Shown: piece by piece, positions 18,603 through 26,103 of the stretch | How the letters are laid out: each line of letters opens with the position of its first letter | How positions within the stretch are numbered: the stretch's first letter is position 1 | NCBI RefSeq assembly: GCF_003671765.1 | Contig: NZ_QPIB01000038.1 | Coordinates: 1 to 64,000, forward strand | Source: Xenophilus sp. E41 | GTDB taxonomy: Bacteria > Pseudomonadota > Gammaproteobacteria > Burkholderiales > Burkholderiaceae_C | DNA: 64,000 nucleotides | Reading direction: 5' to 3' | The notes under the pieces: model-generated | Database searches by the model: none | Seen by the model: the letters and a program-made list of their open reading frames with translations, nothing else | What the model was told of the DNA's origin: nothing | Position numbers and translations under genes: made by a program

Positions 18603-19418
18603 CTAGCGATTCGGGTCGAGGAACTCGCGAACCGCGAGCGCCACGCGTTCGGGTGCGGCCAGCGCCCCGATGTGCGGCACTCCCTCGAGCAGCACACGTT
18701 CCGCGCCCCGGAGGTGCTCGGCCAGTTCGAAGGTCGCTTCGGGCGGGATGAGCCGGTCGGCGGAGCCCGCCATCAGCAGCACCGGCGCCTGCAGCGCTGC
18801 CCAGTCCATCGCCGGGGGAGGCGACTGCATCATGGCGGCGCGCCGCTGTTTCTGCGCATCGTTGCGGCCCGTGCCTCGAAAGATGTCCATGGCCTCCGGA
18901 TGCGCCGCCAGGTAGGCGTCATGGAGGAAATAGGACGCGATGGCAGGAGCATGGGCCGCCGGGTCGGCACGCAGGCGCATCAGGTCGGCGAACACCGGGG
19001 CATTGAAGTCGGCGATCGCGCGGCCCACGCGCCAGGTGCTGCCGAGCACCAGGCGCTCCACTCGGTCCGGATGCCGCAGCGCCAGCACCTGGGCGATCTG
19101 ACCGCCGAAGGACGTGCCGTAGACGTGGGCGCGGGCCGTGGGCGATCCGCCGACGGCCTCGATCAGATCGGCCGCGTCGTCCGCGAGCGCTTCGAGGCCG
19201 TAGGGCGCGTCGCCGTTGGTGGTCCTGCCTGAATCGCGCTGGTCATAGGCCACCACCGTGAACCGAGGCGCAAGCAGCTCGACCAGTGCGTCGAACATGC
19301 CATGGTCGGCTTCGGCGCCATGGATCAGCAGCAGGAGCGGGCCGCTGCCTCCGCGGCGATAAAAGCTGCGCACCTCGCCTCGGCCGGCAAAGCCCTCGTC
19401 CGCATCCGGCGCGCTCAT
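18603..19418 (-). CDS. Alpha/beta hydrolase, last gene of the FAD-hydroxylase operon
   Basis: 271 residues. Typical fold motifs: LLLIHGAEADH (oxyanion region), YDQRDSGRT, nucleophile in VYGTSFGGQ (GxSxG variant GTSFG), the acid in MAGSADRLIP and the catalytic His in EGVPHIGAL. The start at 19418 overlaps the VOC gene stop (ATGA). Together with the aromatic hydroxylase and VOC protein it may cleave a ring-fission or ester product, as MhpC-like hydrolases do, but the substrate is unknown. Confidence 0.9.
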   Translation of the reverse strand: MSAPDADEGFAGRGEVRSFYRRGGSGPLLLLIHGAEADHGMFDALVELLAPRFTVVAYDQRDSGRTTNGDAPYGLEALADDAADLIEAVGGSPTARAHVYGTSFGGQIAQVLALRHPDRVERLVLGSTWRVGRAIADFNAPVFADLMRLRADPAAHAPAIASYFLHDAYLAAHPEAMDIFRGTGRNDAQKQRRAAMMQSPPPAMDWAALQAPVLLMAGSADRLIPPEATFELAEHLRGAERVLLEGVPHIGALAAPERVALAVREFLDPNR

Positions 19419-19831
19419 TCGGGCAACTCGAAGGTGAGTTCGATCTTCGCGCCCGCCGGGTCGCGCAGGAAGATCTGTTGCAGCGGCCAGCCCGGGACGG
19501 GCAGCTCCTCGAAGGGAATCGCCTGTTGCCGAAGCCATCGGCGCGTGTGCTCCAGCCCGGTCGCCCGCAGCGACACATGGTCGAAGCCGGGTCCCGGCGC
19601 GGCCGGCTCGCGCGGTGCGGTCTCGTCCAGGACCGCCGCCAGGTGCACGACGGCGGTCTCGCCGACGTAGAGCCAGTGTCCGTCGAAGGGAAAGTCCGGC
19701 CGAGGCCCGGTCGCCATGCCGAGCACCTCGCAGTAGAAGGCGCGCACGGCGTCGAGCGCGGCTGGCGCACAACGGATGGTGAAGTGGTGGAGGCCGAGCA
19801 GCGCGGGCCCGGTGGCGGGAGCGGCGCTCAC
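19415..19831 (-). CDS. VOC family protein (glyoxalase/bleomycin-resistance/extradiol dioxygenase fold)
   Basis: 138 residues from a GTG at 19831 that overlaps the hydroxylase stop (GTGA). LLGLHHFTIRCAP provides the first metal-site His; GPGFDHVSLRATG a second; and AKIELTFELPE a terminal Glu, as in metal-dependent VOC enzymes. Possible roles are ring-cleavage, isomerisation or resistance; the single-domain length suggests two per dimer. The upstream FAD hydroxylase and downstream hydrolase favour a catabolic step. Confidence 0.88.
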   Translation of the reverse strand: MSAAPATGPALLGLHHFTIRCAPAALDAVRAFYCEVLGMATGPRPDFPFDGHWLYVGETAVVHLAAVLDETAPREPAAPGPGFDHVSLRATGLEHTRRWLRQQAIPFEELPVPGWPLQQIFLRDPAGAKIELTFELPE

Positions 19832-21465
19832 GATGCGCGCGCCTTCCCGAGCACCTGTGCCATCACCGCCGTGAGTTCGGCCGCCGGGTCGTCGGGCGTC
19901 CAGGCGGCGCGGTAGCAGACATGGCCATCGGGCCGGACCAGGGCGGCGCCCCGCATGCCCATGCGGATGCCGCTGGCCGGGTCGATGCTGGGCAGCTGGC
20001 GAAAGTCGATCGGGACGCCCGCCGCGTCGGCGGCCCGTGCGGCGGCCGCCTCCCAGGCCTGTCCCAGCGGGCCGGCCACCAGCACGAAGCGGCGGTCGAA
20101 CCAGTCCAGCGTCGAATGCCTGCGCGCCGCGTCGAGCCACGCATGGGGAAAGCGCCCGCCGGGGCGGTCCGCAGGCTCGTACACGCGCGGGTTCAACGGC
20201 TTGGCCACGGTGCCGTCGGGCACGATCGCGGCGCTCTCGTAGCTGAAGCCCAGGGACTGGCCGATGCTGTGAAGGTGGTTGTCGGTGTCGGTGATCCAGA
20301 ACGCGCAGCGGTCCTCGTTGCCCGATTCGACGGCATCGGCCAGCAGATCGAAGCGCTTGCGGTTGAGGAAGCTGAAGTCTGCGTTCGACACCGCGACCGG
20401 GCGCCGCTCGGCCTCGTAGGTGTCCAGCAACGCGTCGGTCGCCCGGCCCTGCAGCACCAGCGCGAGCTTCCACACCAGGTTGTGCGCATCCTGCACCCCC
20501 GAATTGAGGCCGAAGCCGCCGGTCGGCGGGAAGCGGTGCGCCGCATCGCCCACCAGGAACGCGCGGCCACGCCGGAACTGGCGTGCCACCTGCCGGCTCA
20601 CGCGCCAGGTCGACCGGTTGATGATCTGCACGTCCAGGTCGGCGATGCCGGTGTGCGCCCGCGCGATCTCGATCACCTCCTGGTCGGTCCACGGGTGGTC
20701 GCGCTCGTCCTCGGTGTGGCCGATCTGGCTCACCGTGAGCCACCGGTCGCGGCCGTTGGTGTTGAGGATGGTGGCCGGCGGCACGGCCGGGTCGGTCGGC
20801 AGGATCCGGATCATCGCGGCCTGGCGCGCCACCGGCAGCCGCGACAGGTCGGCGCGCCAGTAGTCGTTGGCCATGATCGCGATGGTCGACGGGCCGTCGA
20901 ACTCGATTCCGAGCTGCCGCCGCACCGAACTGCCTGCGCCGTCGGCGGCCAGCAGGTAGCTGGCCCGCCACTGCTGCGTGGCACCGGTCTCGACATTGCG
21001 CGTGTCGACGATCACGCCCTCGTCCATCAGTTCGAAGCCGGTGCACTCGGTCGAGAACAGGATCCGCCCGTGCCGCGAATGGCGCGCGACGGCGTACAGC
21101 TCTTCCTCCACGGCGTCCTGCGCCACGAAGGACTTGCGCGCCGGCGTGTGGTGAGACACGTCGGGCTCGGGCATGGTGCGGCCGATCTCCCGGCCGGCCA
21201 TGCTCTCGACGAAGGCGAAGACGTCGGCGCCGTCGCCCAGTCCGCGTGCGCGCACCTGCTCCTCGATGCCCCAGAGCCGGAACAGCTCCATCGTGCGCGG
21301 CCAGCAGCCGCGCGACTTGGGATGGACGGTGGTCGACGGGCTGCGCTCGACGACGACGAAGGGGATCTCGAAGCGGTCCAGCAGCAGCGCCAGGGCCAGG
21401 CCCACGGGGCCGCCGCCGACCACGAAGACCGGAACGGATGAGGGGGAGTCAGTCGAGGAGGACAT
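19828..21465 (-). CDS. FAD-dependent aromatic hydroxylase (PheA/TfdB, MhpA-like)
   Basis: 545 residues. FAD-binding_3 family motifs: VFVVGGGPVGLALALLL (GxGxxG), LLAADGAGSSVRRQLGI (DG motif) and GDAAHRFPPTGGFGLNSGVQDAHNLVWKL (second FAD/ribityl site), with a C-terminal thioredoxin-like tail. Such enzymes hydroxylate phenolic rings with NAD(P)H and oxygen. An in-frame ATG at 21522, overlapping the Bug gene stop (TGATG), would add 19 residues and may be the coupled start; neither site has a clear ribosome-binding sequence. Confidence 0.92.
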   Translation of the reverse strand: MSSSTDSPSSVPVFVVGGGPVGLALALLLDRFEIPFVVVERSPSTTVHPKSRGCWPRTMELFRLWGIEEQVRARGLGDGADVFAFVESMAGREIGRTMPEPDVSHHTPARKSFVAQDAVEEELYAVARHSRHGRILFSTECTGFELMDEGVIVDTRNVETGATQQWRASYLLAADGAGSSVRRQLGIEFDGPSTIAIMANDYWRADLSRLPVARQAAMIRILPTDPAVPPATILNTNGRDRWLTVSQIGHTEDERDHPWTDQEVIEIARAHTGIADLDVQIINRSTWRVSRQVARQFRRGRAFLVGDAAHRFPPTGGFGLNSGVQDAHNLVWKLALVLQGRATDALLDTYEAERRPVAVSNADFSFLNRKRFDLLADAVESGNEDRCAFWITDTDNHLHSIGQSLGFSYESAAIVPDGTVAKPLNPRVYEPADRPGGRFPHAWLDAARRHSTLDWFDRRFVLVAGPLGQAWEAAAARAADAAGVPIDFRQLPSIDPASGIRMGMRGAALVRPDGHVCYRAAWTPDDPAAELTAVMAQVLGKARAS

Positions 21466-21521
21466 GGTGCTTGGTGAGTCGAGGAGGAATCGAGGAGAAG
21501 GAGAAGGGCGGAGAGCGGACA

Positions 21522-22523
21522 TCAATCGACCGAGATGCCCAGCGGCGTGAGGTCGCGCCGGTAGCGAGCCAGCTCTTCCTCGTTGAAGCGTGCGAACTGC
21601 GCCGGGGGCATGTTGACCACGGAGCCGACGTACTTCATGGCCGCGAGGTAGGAGGGCTGGCGCGACGCGGCCACCACCTCCGAATAGATCGCCTGCACCA
21701 GTGCGCCGGGCATGCCGGGGGGACCGTACAGCGCACTCCAGGCCGACAGCTCCGCGTTGCGGATGCCCAGTTCGGCCAGGGTGGGCACATCGGGCAGTTC
21801 CGGCACACGCTGTTCGTAACCCACCGCCAGGGCGCGCGCCTTGCCCTCCTGGATCATCGGCAGGCTCAGCAGCGTGCTGAACCAGGTGATGTCGACATGG
21901 CCGCCGAGGAAATCCTGCAGAGGCGAGCCCTTGTAGGGCACGTGCAGCAGGTCGATGCCTGCCGCCCGCGCGAACATGGCGCCGACCACGTGGGTCGGGT
22001 TGCCCGCCCCCCACGAGCCGTAGCTGATCGTGCCCGGCCTGGCCTTCGCCTCGCGAATGACGTCGGCCACGCTCTTGAAGCGCGAATCCGGGCGCACCAT
22101 CATCACGAAGCCGGGCGACACCTGCAGTTGCGTGATCGGCGTGAAGTCGCGCGTCACGTCGTAGGGCATCTTCGAATGCAGCACGGCGTTGGCCAGGTGT
22201 CCACCGGTGGTGAAGAGCAGCGTGGCGCCATCGGGCCTGGCACGCGCCACGTCGCCCGAGCCGATGACGCCCGAGGCGCCCGGCCGGTTGTCGACCACGT
22301 ACGTGCGCGAGGTGGTCTGGCGCAGCGCCTCCGCCAGCGCCCGGGCGATCCCGTCGACCGGGTTGCCCCCCGGAAACGGCACCACCAGGCGCACCACCTG
22401 CGGCGAGCTCTGCGCTCTCGCGGCCTGGCTTAGGATGGCCGACGCAGGCGCCAGCGCCAATGCCTTCAGCCATTGCCGCCGCTGGCGGCCGAGGGAATCG
22501 AATGTGCGATCGAACTGGGCCAT
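21522..22523 (-). CDS. Bug family tripartite tricarboxylate transporter-type solute-binding protein
   Basis: 333 residues with an N-terminal export signal (RRQWLKALALAPASAILSQ ARA), possibly Tat-type from the RRQWL start. Mature text VRLVVPFPGGNPVDGIARAL, DNRPGASGVIGSGDVARARPDG and LHVPYKGSPLQDFLGG are hallmark Bug motifs. It binds a carboxylated solute in the periplasm. No TctA/TctB membrane genes are close, as is usual in these bacteria. First gene of the operon; GGAG precedes the ATG. Its solute is probably the substrate of the hydroxylase that follows. Confidence 0.94.
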   Translation of the reverse strand: MAQFDRTFDSLGRQRRQWLKALALAPASAILSQAARAQSSPQVVRLVVPFPGGNPVDGIARALAEALRQTTSRTYVVDNRPGASGVIGSGDVARARPDGATLLFTTGGHLANAVLHSKMPYDVTRDFTPITQLQVSPGFVMMVRPDSRFKSVADVIREAKARPGTISYGSWGAGNPTHVVGAMFARAAGIDLLHVPYKGSPLQDFLGGHVDITWFSTLLSLPMIQEGKARALAVGYEQRVPELPDVPTLAELGIRNAELSAWSALYGPPGMPGALVQAIYSEVVAASRQPSYLAAMKYVGSVVNMPPAQFARFNEEELARYRRDLTPLGISVD

Positions 22524-22541
22524 GTTGTCTCCGTGACGCGC

Positions 22542-22601
22542 TTAACGCATAGATAATTGCTTTAATGGATCGCATTCTTAACGCAAAAACTACTGCATTA
22601 A
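22542..22601. promoter_or_regulatory. Two identical-geometry palindromic operators between Bug operon and TetR gene
   Basis: Site 1 (22542-22565) is TTAACGCA-N8-TGCTTTAA and site 2 (22578-22601) is TTAACGCA-N8-TGCATTAA. Both have 8-base arms and an 8-base spacer, and their centres are 36 bases apart. The segment is much more A+T-rich than its surroundings. They are the natural binding sites of the divergent TetR protein. Site 1 overlaps the first possible ATG of that gene and site 2 would lie inside it, which supports the later GTG start. Confidence 0.85.
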
Positions 22602-22624
22602 CTGGGACTAACCCGGAGGCCGCC

Positions 22625-23221
22625 GTGCCCGATCCGGTCGTGCCGCGTCGCCGCACGGGGGGTCGCAGCGCACGCGTACTCGAGGCGGTGGAACGCGCCG
22701 TGATCGACGAGCTCAAGGAGTTCGGCATCGAGGACTTCTCGATCCCGCGTGTGGCGAGCCGCGCGGGGATCAGCAGCTCGTCGCTCTACCGGCGCTGGGC
22801 GAACAAGGCGGCGCTGATCGCCTTCGCCGGCGGGCGCACGGCGCAGCAGGGCATTCCTTTCCCCGATTGCGGCTCGCTGCGCGACGACCTCGTGCGGGTC
22901 CTGGTCGAGGTGGCTGCGACCTTCGGCAACAGCAGCAGCCGGGCCATGATCGCCCTGGCGTTCAGCAGCAACGACTCGCCCGAGATCCAGCAGACGCAGG
23001 CGGCCTTCTGGCAGCAGCGCGTCGAGTTGCAGTGGCCGATGTTCGAGCGCGCCATCGCGCGGGGCGAGATCGACGCGCGCGTGGACACCGGCGCGGTGAT
23101 CGAGCGCGTGGTCGGGCCGCTCTACTTCCGTTACTTCGTGATGCGCCAGCCGGCGAGCCGGCGTTTCATGGAGGACCTGGTCGACGCGGTCTTGCAGACG
23201 CTGCCGCTGCGCAGCGCGTGA
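22625..23221 (+). CDS. TetR/AcrR family regulator of the divergent catabolic operon
   Basis: 198 residues from the GTG at 22625, which has GGAGG at 22615-22619. The helix-turn-helix is FSIPRVASRAGISSSSLYRRWANKAALI. The C-terminal half has the TetR_C fold with RVVGPLYFRYFVMRQP. An ATG at 22565 would add 20 residues, but that stretch is A+T-rich, holds both operators and lacks a ribosome-binding site. It probably represses both its own gene and the Bug-hydroxylase operon until an aromatic ligand binds. Confidence 0.88.
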   Translation: MPDPVVPRRRTGGRSARVLEAVERAVIDELKEFGIEDFSIPRVASRAGISSSSLYRRWANKAALIAFAGGRTAQQGIPFPDCGSLRDDLVRVLVEVAATFGNSSSRAMIALAFSSNDSPEIQQTQAAFWQQRVELQWPMFERAIARGEIDARVDTGAVIERVVGPLYFRYFVMRQPASRRFMEDLVDAVLQTLPLRSA

Positions 23222-23336: not shown

Positions 23337-24248
23337 ATGATCCAGGACTTCCACGGCAAGACGGCAGTGCTCACCGGCGCCGGCTCCGGCTTCGGCCTCG
23401 AATGCGCACGCATCGGCGCCGCGCGCGGCATGAACCTCGTGCTGGTCGACGTGCAGCAGGACGCGCTGGACAAGGCCCGGGCCGAGATGGAAGCCGCTGG
23501 CGCGCAGGTGCTGGCGATGAAGGTCGACGTGTCGAGTGCCAAGGAGATGGAAGCGCTGGCCGCGGCCGTGAAGGAGCGCTTCGGCGCGCCGCATTTCGTC
23601 TTCAACAACGCGGGCGTCGGCGCCGGCGGCCTGGTGTGGGAGAACACCGTGGCCGACTGGGAATGGGTGCTCGGCGTCGACCTGTGGGGCGTGGTGCACG
23701 GCGTGCGCCTGTTCGTGCCCATGATGCTCGAGGCCGCCGCCAAGGACCCGTCGTACCGCGGCCACGTGACCAACACCGCCAGCATGGCCGGGCTGCTCAC
23801 GCCGCCCAACATGGGCATCTACAACGCCGCCAAGGCGGCGGTGGTGAGCCTGACCGAGACCATGTACCAGGACCTGAAGCTGGTGACCGACCAGATCGGC
23901 GCCAGCCTGCTGTGCCCGTACTTCGTGCCCACCGGCATCACCAGCAGCGAGCGCAACCGCCCCAACGCGCCCAAGGAAACCGAGCTCACCAAGAGCCAGC
24001 TCATCGGCCAGGCCATGAGCAACAAGGCGGTGAGCAGCGGCAAGATCACGGCCGGCGAAGTCGCGCACAAGGTGTTCAAGGCCATCAGCGACAACCAGTT
24101 CTACGTCTTCAGCCACGAAAGCCCGAAGGCCCTGGGCAACATCACCAGCCGCATGGAGAACATCGTGGCGATGAAGAACCCGGCCGACCCGTTCCTGGAA
24201 GCGCCCGCCATCGGCGCCAAGCTGCGCGAGCAGCTGCGCGCGGCTTGA
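23337..24248 (+). CDS. SDR family NAD(P)-dependent oxidoreductase
   Basis: 303 residues. TGAGSGFGLE (cofactor), FNNAGVG, catalytic Ser in NTASMAG, and YNAAK are all in place; the 45-residue tail after the Rossmann fold is longer than in FabG. The ATG follows AAGGCTCCCTTCC, a weak site. The SRPBCC gene starts 17 bases after its stop, so they are probably co-transcribed. The substrate is not predictable. Confidence 0.92.
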   Translation: MIQDFHGKTAVLTGAGSGFGLECARIGAARGMNLVLVDVQQDALDKARAEMEAAGAQVLAMKVDVSSAKEMEALAAAVKERFGAPHFVFNNAGVGAGGLVWENTVADWEWVLGVDLWGVVHGVRLFVPMMLEAAAKDPSYRGHVTNTASMAGLLTPPNMGIYNAAKAAVVSLTETMYQDLKLVTDQIGASLLCPYFVPTGITSSERNRPNAPKETELTKSQLIGQAMSNKAVSSGKITAGEVAHKVFKAISDNQFYVFSHESPKALGNITSRMENIVAMKNPADPFLEAPAIGAKLREQLRAA

Positions 24249-24738: not shown

Positions 24739-26103
24739 ATGACTTCTTCCGCTGTTCCCTCTTCCGACGACGCGGCCCCGCCCGCGGCGGTGCCTTTCCT
24801 CGAAGCCCTGCGCTTCTGGCTCAAGCTCGGCTTCATCAGCTTCGGCGGGCCGGCCGGGCAGATCGCGATCATGCACACCGAACTGGTGGAGCGGCGGCGC
24901 TGGCTGTCGGAAGGGCGCTTCCTGCACGCGCTCAACTACTGCATGCTGCTGCCCGGCCCCGAAGCGCAACAGCTCGCCACGTACATCGGCTGGCTGATGC
25001 ACCGCACGGCGGGCGGCATCGTCGCCGGCGCGCTGTTCGTGCTGCCTTCGCTGGCGATCCTCATCGCGCTGTCGTGGATCTACATGGCCTATGGGCACCT
25101 CACGGTGGTGGCGGGCATCTTCTACGGGCTGAAGCCCGCGATCACGGCAATCGTGCTGCACGCGGCGCACCGCATCGGCAGCCGGGCGATTCGCAACCGG
25201 TGGAAGCTCGGGCTCGCGGTGGCCGCGTTCATCGCCATCTTTTGGGGACAGGTGCCGTTCCCGGCCATCGTCGCGGTGGCAGCGCTGCTGGGATGGCTGG
25301 GCGCGCGCTGGCGGCCGCAGCTTTTCTCGCCGGCCGGCCACGGCGCCGCGCAACGTTCGGCCGGGCGCGCGCTCATCGACGACGACACGCCGACGCCGGC
25401 GCATGCACGCTTCTCGCGCGCCGGCCTGGCACGCGTGCTGGCGGTGGGCGCGCTACTGTGGCTGGTGCCGATGGGCCTGCTGGTGGCCGATGGCGGCTGG
25501 CAGGGCACGCTGGCCCAGATGGCCTGGTTCTTCAGCAAGGCGGCGCTGCTGACCTTCGGCGGCGCGTATGCCGTGCTGCCCTACGTCTACCAGGGCGCGG
25601 TGGACCATTTCCACTGGCTCAGCGCGCCGCAGATGATGGACGGCCTGGCCCTGGGCGAAACCACGCCCGGCCCGCTGATCATGGTGGTGGCCTTCGTCGG
25701 CTTCGTGGGCGGCTGGCTGCAGCAGGTTGCGGGCGCCGGCGCGCCCTTCCTCGGCGGCGCGCTGGCGGCGGTGGTCGTCACCTTCTTCACCTTCCTGCCG
25801 TCCTTCCTCTTCATCCTGGCCGGCGGCCCGCTGATCGAGGCCACGCACGGGCGCCTCGGCTTCACGGCGCCGCTGGCGGCCATCACGGCGGCGGTGGTGG
25901 GCGTGATCGTCAACCTGGCCCTGTTCTTCGCCTGGCACGTGCTGTGGCCCGATGGCTTCGGCGGGCGCTTCGACATCGCGGCAGCCGTCATCGCGGTGGC
26001 GGCCGGCGTGGCGCTGTTTCGATTGAAGCTCGGCGTGATGCCGGTGCTGGGCCTGTGCGCAGTGGCCGGCCTGCTGCTGCGATGGATGGGGGTGGGCGGC
26101 TGA
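24739..26103 (+). CDS. chrA: Chromate efflux transporter ChrA
   Basis: 454 residues, long-chain bidomain ChrA. Both halves carry the CHR signature: FWLKLGFISFGGPAGQIAIMH near residue 30 and MAWFFSKAALLTFGGAYAVLPY near 265, each followed by an LLPGPEAQQLATYIG / ETTPGPLIMVVAFVG motif. Ten or more membrane segments are visible. It exports chromate by a proton- or sulfate-linked mechanism. No chrB regulator is adjacent. Confidence 0.94.
   Translation: MTSSAVPSSDDAAPPAAVPFLEALRFWLKLGFISFGGPAGQIAIMHTELVERRRWLSEGRFLHALNYCMLLPGPEAQQLATYIGWLMHRTAGGIVAGALFVLPSLAILIALSWIYMAYGHLTVVAGIFYGLKPAITAIVLHAAHRIGSRAIRNRWKLGLAVAAFIAIFWGQVPFPAIVAVAALLGWLGARWRPQLFSPAGHGAAQRSAGRALIDDDTPTPAHARFSRAGLARVLAVGALLWLVPMGLLVADGGWQGTLAQMAWFFSKAALLTFGGAYAVLPYVYQGAVDHFHWLSAPQMMDGLALGETTPGPLIMVVAFVGFVGGWLQQVAGAGAPFLGGALAAVVVTFFTFLPSFLFILAGGPLIEATHGRLGFTAPLAAITAAVVGVIVNLALFFAWHVLWPDGFGGRFDIAAAVIAVAAGVALFRLKLGVMPVLGLCAVAGLLLRWMGVGG

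What the first reader, a model, noticed from the sequence alone, without database searches (positions are those of the whole stretch)
22542..22625. Two matched palindromic operators imply a later start for the TetR regulator
Two copies of TTAACGCA-N8-TGCNTTAA lie 36 bases apart between divergent genes. The first ATG of the TetR frame overlaps one site and the second would sit in the coding sequence, while a GTG at 22625 has GGAGG at the right distance. The sites thus predict both the regulator's binding motif and its true start.
Basis: seen in the sequence. Interest (0 to 1): 0.6.

Follow-up and report, generated by a model that had tools for sequence, protein, structure and literature searches.

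The report
Twin operators of a TetR repressor
Two matching palindromes between a transcriptional regulator and the genes beside it are very probably that regulator's own binding sites, because the same paired sites stand before related regulators in distant bacteria; where the regulator protein itself begins is still open.

Summary
In detail: TTAACGCA-N8-TGCNTTAA occurs exactly twice, 36 bp start to start, between tctC and a TetR gene, and nowhere else in the 5.84-Mb genome. Comparison supports them as the regulator's operators. Five orthologues in two close clades keep the pair at exactly 36 bp, although the divergent gene is TctC-like in one clade and a CocE/S15-type hydrolase in the other. 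More distant relatives, Actinomycetota included, carry the same half-sites with 9, 10 or 11 bases between the GC dinucleotides, mostly as pairs 45-50 bp apart. Of 87 TetR loci read, 55 of 58 with an N-terminal GGRSA-type arm have at least one site; 0 of 29 without it do (the loci are related, so not independent).

The start claim is only partly supported. GGAGG-N5-GTG at 22625 is rarely matched by chance (4 of 1231 internal start codons). But the premise that an operator cannot be coding fails: the nearest orthologues (L008, L070) have no ATG/GTG/TTG after site 2, so site 2 must be coding there. ATG 22565, 7 nt after a -10-like GATAAT, could be a leaderless start. I favour GTG 22625 (about 0.6); both may be used.

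The parts
22542..22565 (.). Operator O1 (24-bp palindrome)
   Evidence: Exact pattern match; conserved beside 5 orthologues
22578..22601 (.). Operator O2 (24-bp palindrome), 36 bp from O1
   Evidence: Exact pattern match; conserved at exactly 36 bp in 5 orthologues
22552..22557 (+). -10-like hexamer GATAAT inside O1, 7 nt before ATG 22565
   Evidence: Only hexamer with at least 4 of 6 matches to TATAAT, with A at 2 and T at 6, starting at 22530-22624 on +; no good -35; the promoter scan found none
22615..22619 (+). Shine-Dalgarno GGAGG, 5 nt before GTG 22625
   Evidence: Sequence; chance rate 4 of 1231
22625..23221 (+). TetR regulator, favoured start GTG (198 aa)
   Evidence: TetR_N and TetR_C_11 (PF16859) domains
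22565..23221 (+). TetR regulator, alternative longer frame from ATG (218 aa), with O2 at about codons 5-13
   Evidence: Open frame; L008 and L070 must start just here
22646..22678 (+). Codons of the N-terminal arm RRRTGGRSARV just before and at the start of helix 1
   Evidence: Protein alignment; residues 1-32 disordered, helix 1 from residue 34 in the model; arm-operator association
21522..22523 (-). TctC-type solute receptor, first gene of the divergent operon
   Evidence: PF03401
19828..21462 (-). FAD-dependent aromatic-ring hydroxylase (start not fixed)
   Evidence: PF01494 and PF21274 above cut-off
19415..19846 (-). Small VOC-fold (glyoxalase/dioxygenase superfamily) protein (start not fixed)
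   Evidence: PF00903 above cut-off
18603..19334 (-). Alpha/beta hydrolase (region matched; start not fixed)
   Evidence: PF00561; resembles 3-oxoadipate enol-lactonase but far below the cut-off
23337..24248 (+). Short-chain dehydrogenase downstream of tetR; membership in the regulated unit not tested
   Evidence: PF00106

Best explanation
A local TetR-family repressor binds two 24-bp operators, O1 and O2, in the divergent region. It shuts off its own gene and the tctC-hydroxylase-VOC-hydrolase operon until an inducer, probably an aromatic substrate or intermediate, releases it. O1 covers the likely regulator promoter and lies 18 bp upstream of the tctC start codon; O2 lies just downstream. The conserved N-terminal arm (RRRTGGRSARV) probably reads the outer TTAA of each half-site while the recognition helix reads the inner GCA/TGC. 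Shown by comparison: the sites, the pair spacing, and the link of the sites to arm and regulator. Inferred: binding, repression, inducer, promoter positions and the arm contact. In this genome the regulator most likely starts at GTG 22625 (about 0.6), although its two nearest orthologues must start between the operators.
For: Exact pair unique in the genome. Same pair at exactly 36 bp in L008, L070, L042, L068 and L069, beside a TctC-like gene in one clade and a Peptidase_S15/CocE-type gene in the other (for L060; the others by eye). A DNA-only search of 399 family genomes for the two-site architecture hit the same three genomes that hold the orthologue, at 0-2 mismatches. Of 53 loci 42 have two or more sites against 1 of 5300 shuffles. 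Arm against site: 55 of 58 against 0 of 29. Precedent for a TetR-family repressor whose operator overlaps its own promoter: AcuR (PMC3017554, passages).
Against: No binding, expression or inducer data. No sigma-70 promoter found by the scan in the window or L008. L071, the nearest relative outside the window's three-member clade, has the arm but no site; it follows an open frame on the same strand. L097 likewise has the arm and no site. One 3-mismatch hit of the architecture (G384) and 5 hits of the reversed control show the chance level. The loci are related, so the counts are not independent.
Confidence: 0.8

Rival explanations
1. Same operators, but the true start is ATG 22565: a leaderless mRNA begins at or next to this ATG and O2 lies inside the coding sequence, as it must in L008 and L070.
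For: L008 (GTG) and L070 (ATG) have their only in-frame start codon near the sites at O1+26; the window's ATG is at O1+23, in the same frame, and O2-to-arm distance is 80 nt in all three. GATAAT ends 7 nt before the ATG and is the only -10-like hexamer of the region on that strand. First starts after site 2 in relatives lack a Shine-Dalgarno in 40 of 41 loci, which suits leaderless or SD-less starts. AcuR is a proven leaderless TetR-family gene (PMC3017554).
Against: GGAGG-N5-GTG at 22625 would be a rare coincidence (4 of 1231). Codon-position G+C over 22565-22624 is 0.50/0.55/0.45 against 0.68/0.50/0.94 in the conserved part, though the operators themselves force low G+C. 41 of 43 loci have a start after site 2.
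Confidence: 0.4
2. The sites bind a different regulator, and the TetR protein is only a neighbour.
For: Binding has not been measured.
Against: The pair follows orthologous TetR genes when the divergent gene differs, and the site tracks the TetR N-terminal arm across loci and within the window's own genome.
Confidence: 0.05
3. The palindromes are chance, or a transcription terminator or hairpin.
For: Inverted repeats are common between genes.
Against: Shuffle controls; no terminator-like site; half-sites and spacing are conserved while the centres vary; leader folding is no better than shuffles.
Confidence: 0.02

Closest known systems
AcuR of Rhodobacter sphaeroides (PMC3017554, passages read)
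   Same: TetR-family repressor of its own catabolic transcription unit; palindromic operator overlapping the promoter; start without Shine-Dalgarno, as in most relatives here
   Different: One operator of another sequence (TAATAGAC-n6-GTCTATTA) and an operon, not divergent genes; leaderless mRNA proven there, only possible here
EdcR of Caenibius tardaugens (PMC8700777, passages read)
   Same: TetR_C_11 (PF16859) repressor of an aromatic/steroid catabolic cluster; long palindrome proposed over the -10 box
   Different: Proposed operator TnnCnnTACnAnTnGTAnnGnnA is unrelated; palindrome proposed in silico; no paired sites mentioned in the passages seen
SimR (title only, seen in the reference lists of PMC4150764 and PMC5812520; paper not held)
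   Same: TetR-family repressor whose flexible N-terminal extension binds the minor groove
   Different: Sequence and operator not compared here
PDB 2id3, 2fq4, 2zb9: nearest solved chains
   Same: Same family; 2id3 also has RPGGRTAR before helix 1 (alignment)
   Different: Deposited as (putative) transcriptional regulators; operators not compared. A functional paper on SCO0332 is cited in PMC6768106 but not held; that 2zb9 is SCO0332 is recalled

Membership tests
TetR family of regulators, TetR_C_11 (PF16859) type | TetR_N helix-turn-helix plus TetR_C_11 domain above the curated cut-offs | tested here: met
   34.9 bits against 24 and 83.4 against 32; all-helical model with helix 1 from residue 34
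TetR family of regulators, TetR_C_11 (PF16859) type | Binds a palindromic operator at its own or a divergent promoter | not testable with these tools
   Conserved palindromes only; no binding data
GGRSA-arm subgroup with TTAAYGCA operators (proposed here) | [GN]GR[STA]A arm just before helix 1 | tested here: met
   RRRTGGRSARV
GGRSA-arm subgroup with TTAAYGCA operators (proposed here) | At least one site of 10 of 12 or better with 9-11 bases between the GCs upstream of the arm | tested here: met
   Two sites of 12 of 12; over all loci 55 of 58 with arm, 0 of 29 without
Leaderless TetR genes (AcuR type) | mRNA 5' end at the start codon and no Shine-Dalgarno | tested here: inconclusive
   ATG 22565 fits by sequence, GTG 22625 has GGAGG; no RNA data

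The most novel reading that the evidence does not exclude
A TetR subgroup spanning at least two phyla and marked by a GGRSA arm shares one operator code: half-site TTAAYGCA, with 9, 10 or 11 bases between the GC dinucleotides set per lineage, normally two sites 36 or 45-50 bp apart. One genome can keep two such regulators apart by a single base of spacer (10 here, 9 at the contig C2 paralogue). In the window's branch the second operator has moved into the regulator's own transcribed sequence, and in L008 and L070 into its coding sequence.
Probability: 0.5. Interest if true: 0.6.

Novelty: new member of a known kind. Interest (0 to 1): 0.45.

Why it matters
The operator of a TetR-family regulator can seldom be predicted from the protein (general knowledge). 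If an N-terminal arm announces the half-site, operators and targets could be called from sequence for many unstudied regulators, and the 9/10/11 spacer becomes a clean test of how closely related repressors avoid each other's sites. The locus also warns annotators that an operator inside a reading frame does not by itself move the start codon.

Tried and rejected
Rejected: my own early conclusion that the 37% paralogues lack sites (note). It came from reading minus-strand loci unturned and from allowing only a 10-base spacer; one search corrected it.

Rejected: codon-position conservation as a test of the long frame. Differences are flat upstream of the arm even in L008 against L070 (4, 7 and 7 of 14, 15 and 15), where the stretch must be coding, so the test cannot decide.

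Nothing useful: promoter and terminator scans; RNA folding of the leader; further targets in the genome with 10- or 9-base spacers (6 places against 6 in the control; 5 against 8, two of the 5 being the C2 paralogue's pair); wider orthologue searches in order and class (9 of 399 and 1 of 369 genomes at E<=1e-28), where two other-family loci carry one site each (L052, L053) and the rest none.

Weak points of my counts: L057 and L058 were cut at the wrong place because their contigs are short, so they count as misses and their branches in the tree mean nothing; one search uses the right positions, with only 143 bases available for L058. Of the matches listed only those returned as loci (L068-L096, plus L042) were read. 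Of 38 plasmid records 12 were read, none of the 5 Pantoea records. Nine of the 29 no-arm loci (L023-L031) matched over the helix-turn-helix only. My note gives 6 reversed-control hits; a recount of its table gives 5.

Literature: searches showed no report of a TTAACGCA-type TetR operator. These were listings, cut in several cases (20 of 96 papers shown, 10 of 28, 12 of 105, 8 of 19, 8 of 208), and most subscription papers are not held. Passages were read in PMC3017554, PMC8700777, PMC4150764, PMC5812520, PMC6768106 and PMC12928067 (the last was irrelevant: a primer and another palindrome).

Full report
What is there. Two 24-bp palindromes, O1 (22542-22565) and O2 (22578-22601), lie 36 bp apart start to start between tctC (21522-22523, minus) and a TetR gene (plus). 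No shuffled window gave as many matches (0 of 100), and the 5.84-Mb genome holds no other exact copy even with the fifth base relaxed. With up to 3 mismatches, 4 further places appear, against 6 for the reversed control. The TetR protein has TetR_N and TetR_C_11 domains. The divergent operon reads tctC, FAD aromatic-ring hydroxylase, VOC-fold protein, alpha/beta hydrolase. Downstream of tetR lie a short-chain dehydrogenase and a polyketide-cyclase-like gene.

Are they the regulator's operators? I read the upstream regions of relatives of the regulator. Of 399 genomes sampled from the family, 3 held a match at E<=1e-25. A DNA-only search for the two-site architecture with up to 3 mismatches, in what appears to be the same sample of 399, hit those 3 genomes at 0-2 mismatches and one other at 3; the reversed pattern gave 5 hits. 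In L008 (same genus, 65% identity) and L042 (another genus, 39%) each site scores 11 of 12 and the spacing is exactly 36. A search of 101 genomes of G134's genus, 61 with a match at E<=1e-20, added L070 (nearest to L008) and L068 and L069 (near L042), again 36 bp. L008 also shows one overlapping weaker hit (10 of 12) that I take for chance. In the L042 group the divergent gene is a Peptidase_S15/CocE-type hydrolase (for L060; L068 and L069 by eye), not TctC. So the pair follows the regulator and not the neighbour.

A wider code. Relatives at 35-41% identity in the window's genus, one of them in the same genome (contig C2, divergent MFS gene), carry the same half-sites with 9 instead of 10 bases between the GC dinucleotides, 45-46 bp apart; 11 of these 12 loci have both sites at 10 of 12 or better, and L013 has one. 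In G134's genus all 25 loci read from that wider group (L072-L096) have two sites with 10 bases, 45-49 bp apart. Of 53 loci in all, 42 have two or more sites, against 1 of 5300 shuffles. Twelve of the 38 plasmid records found by tblastn were fetched, all from Actinomycetota. Eleven of the 12 have at least one site at 9 of 12 or better and 8 have a pair 45-50 bp apart, with 9, 10 or 11 bases between the GCs. In Rhodococcus ruber the divergent gene is again CocE/NonD.

Arm and site. At the stricter threshold of 10 of 12, over 87 TetR loci, 55 of 58 proteins with a [GN]GR[STA]A arm before helix 1 have at least one site and 48 have two or more; 0 of 29 without the arm have any. The three arm-bearing exceptions are L071 and L097, which follow a gene or open frame on the same strand, and L098, whose pair scores 9 each. 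L071 is the nearest relative outside the window's own clade, so it counts against a strict rule. In the window's genome 5 proteins match TetR_C_11, 3 above the cut-off; the two with the arm have pairs, the other three have neither arm nor site. These loci share ancestry, and nine of the no-arm loci are distant, so the Fisher value printed is not independent evidence.

Where does the protein start? GTG 22625 has GGAGG with a 5-nt spacer. Among 1231 in-frame ATG/GTG/TTG codons in the last 60% of 58 predicted genes (window, L059, L061, L062), 4 have GGAGG 4-9 nt upstream, so the match is meaningful. Family habit also points downstream: 41 of 43 loci have an in-frame start after site 2, in 38 of the 41 the first one 10-17 residues before the arm; only the window's has a Shine-Dalgarno-like stretch by the rule used. 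Against this, L008 and L070 have none; their only in-frame start codon near the sites is at O1+26, next to the window's ATG at O1+23, and O2-to-arm is 80 nt in all three. In those two genomes O2 is therefore coding, unless a non-canonical start is used. The window's ATG lies 7 nt after GATAAT, the only -10-like hexamer on that strand in 22530-22624. A transcript from there could serve a leaderless ATG start and, 60 nt on, the GGAGG-GTG start. The tree puts the window as sister to L008+L070 (99/96) with L071 outside, so an upstream shift in L008+L070 alone is as economical as one in all three. G+C at third codon positions is 0.45 in 22565-22624 against 0.94 in the conserved part, but the operators force that. 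I put about 0.6 on GTG as the main start and 0.4 on ATG; both may be used.

Mechanism. Most likely a local repressor: the protein on O1 covers the regulator's probable promoter and the region just before tctC, and O2 strengthens repression or blocks elongation. The spacings 36 and 46 differ by about one helical turn (10.5 bp per turn, recalled), which suggests that the relative face of the sites matters. A 24-bp site is longer than the 15-17 bp of the single-dimer binders listed in PMC4150764 and within the 22-32 bp of its dimer-of-dimers group (passages). Either two dimers bind each site, or one dimer reaches the outer TTAA with its arm, as the title of the SimR paper describes for that protein (title seen in reference lists; paper not held). 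The model has residues 1-32 disordered and helix 1 from residue 34 (mean pLDDT 75.7, ten sequences), which allows a flexible arm but proves no contact.

Function. The operon looks catabolic: ring hydroxylase, VOC protein and a hydrolase that resembles 3-oxoadipate enol-lactonase far below the cut-off, with a TctC receptor. L061 (genome of L008) has the same order, with Pfam support for hydroxylase and hydrolase and likeness by eye for the other two. A Variovorax paradoxus replicon has the hydroxylase (55%), a small protein and a hydrolase with an ABC transporter instead of TctC.

Verdict. The start inference may be right for this genome, but its premise is broken by the nearest orthologues.

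Noticed in passing
window 19828-22728 (-): A 966-codon frame is open from the hydroxylase through tctC and the operators into the TetR gene; it is mostly open sequence opposite or out of frame with real genes, not one gene.
   Followed up: partly
window 24739-26103 (+): Chromate efflux transporter family protein (TIGR00937, 230.6 bits against 171.7) next to the regulated region.
   Followed up: no
L055, about 1375-1442: A TetR-like gene without the arm has two TTGCAACT-TTGCAA-type palindromes about 44 bp apart upstream: another operator sequence, yet a similar pair spacing.
   Followed up: no
L034, L036, L040, L041, upstream of the match: Relatives with an RRRGKDLE-type N-terminus share AATAAGATGTG-type palindromes instead: perhaps a second arm-operator pairing.
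   Followed up: no
L103 4929-9446 (Variovorax paradoxus CP063167.1): Related hydroxylase, small protein and hydrolase stand with an ABC transporter, a GAF-domain protein and a LysR regulator nearby, so uptake and regulation parts seem exchangeable.
   Followed up: partly
L042, L068, L069, between site 2 and ATG: By eye, TTAACA/TTAACG/TTAGTC-N17-TACCAT stands 8 nt before a conserved ATG with no Shine-Dalgarno, as for a leaderless gene.
   Followed up: partly
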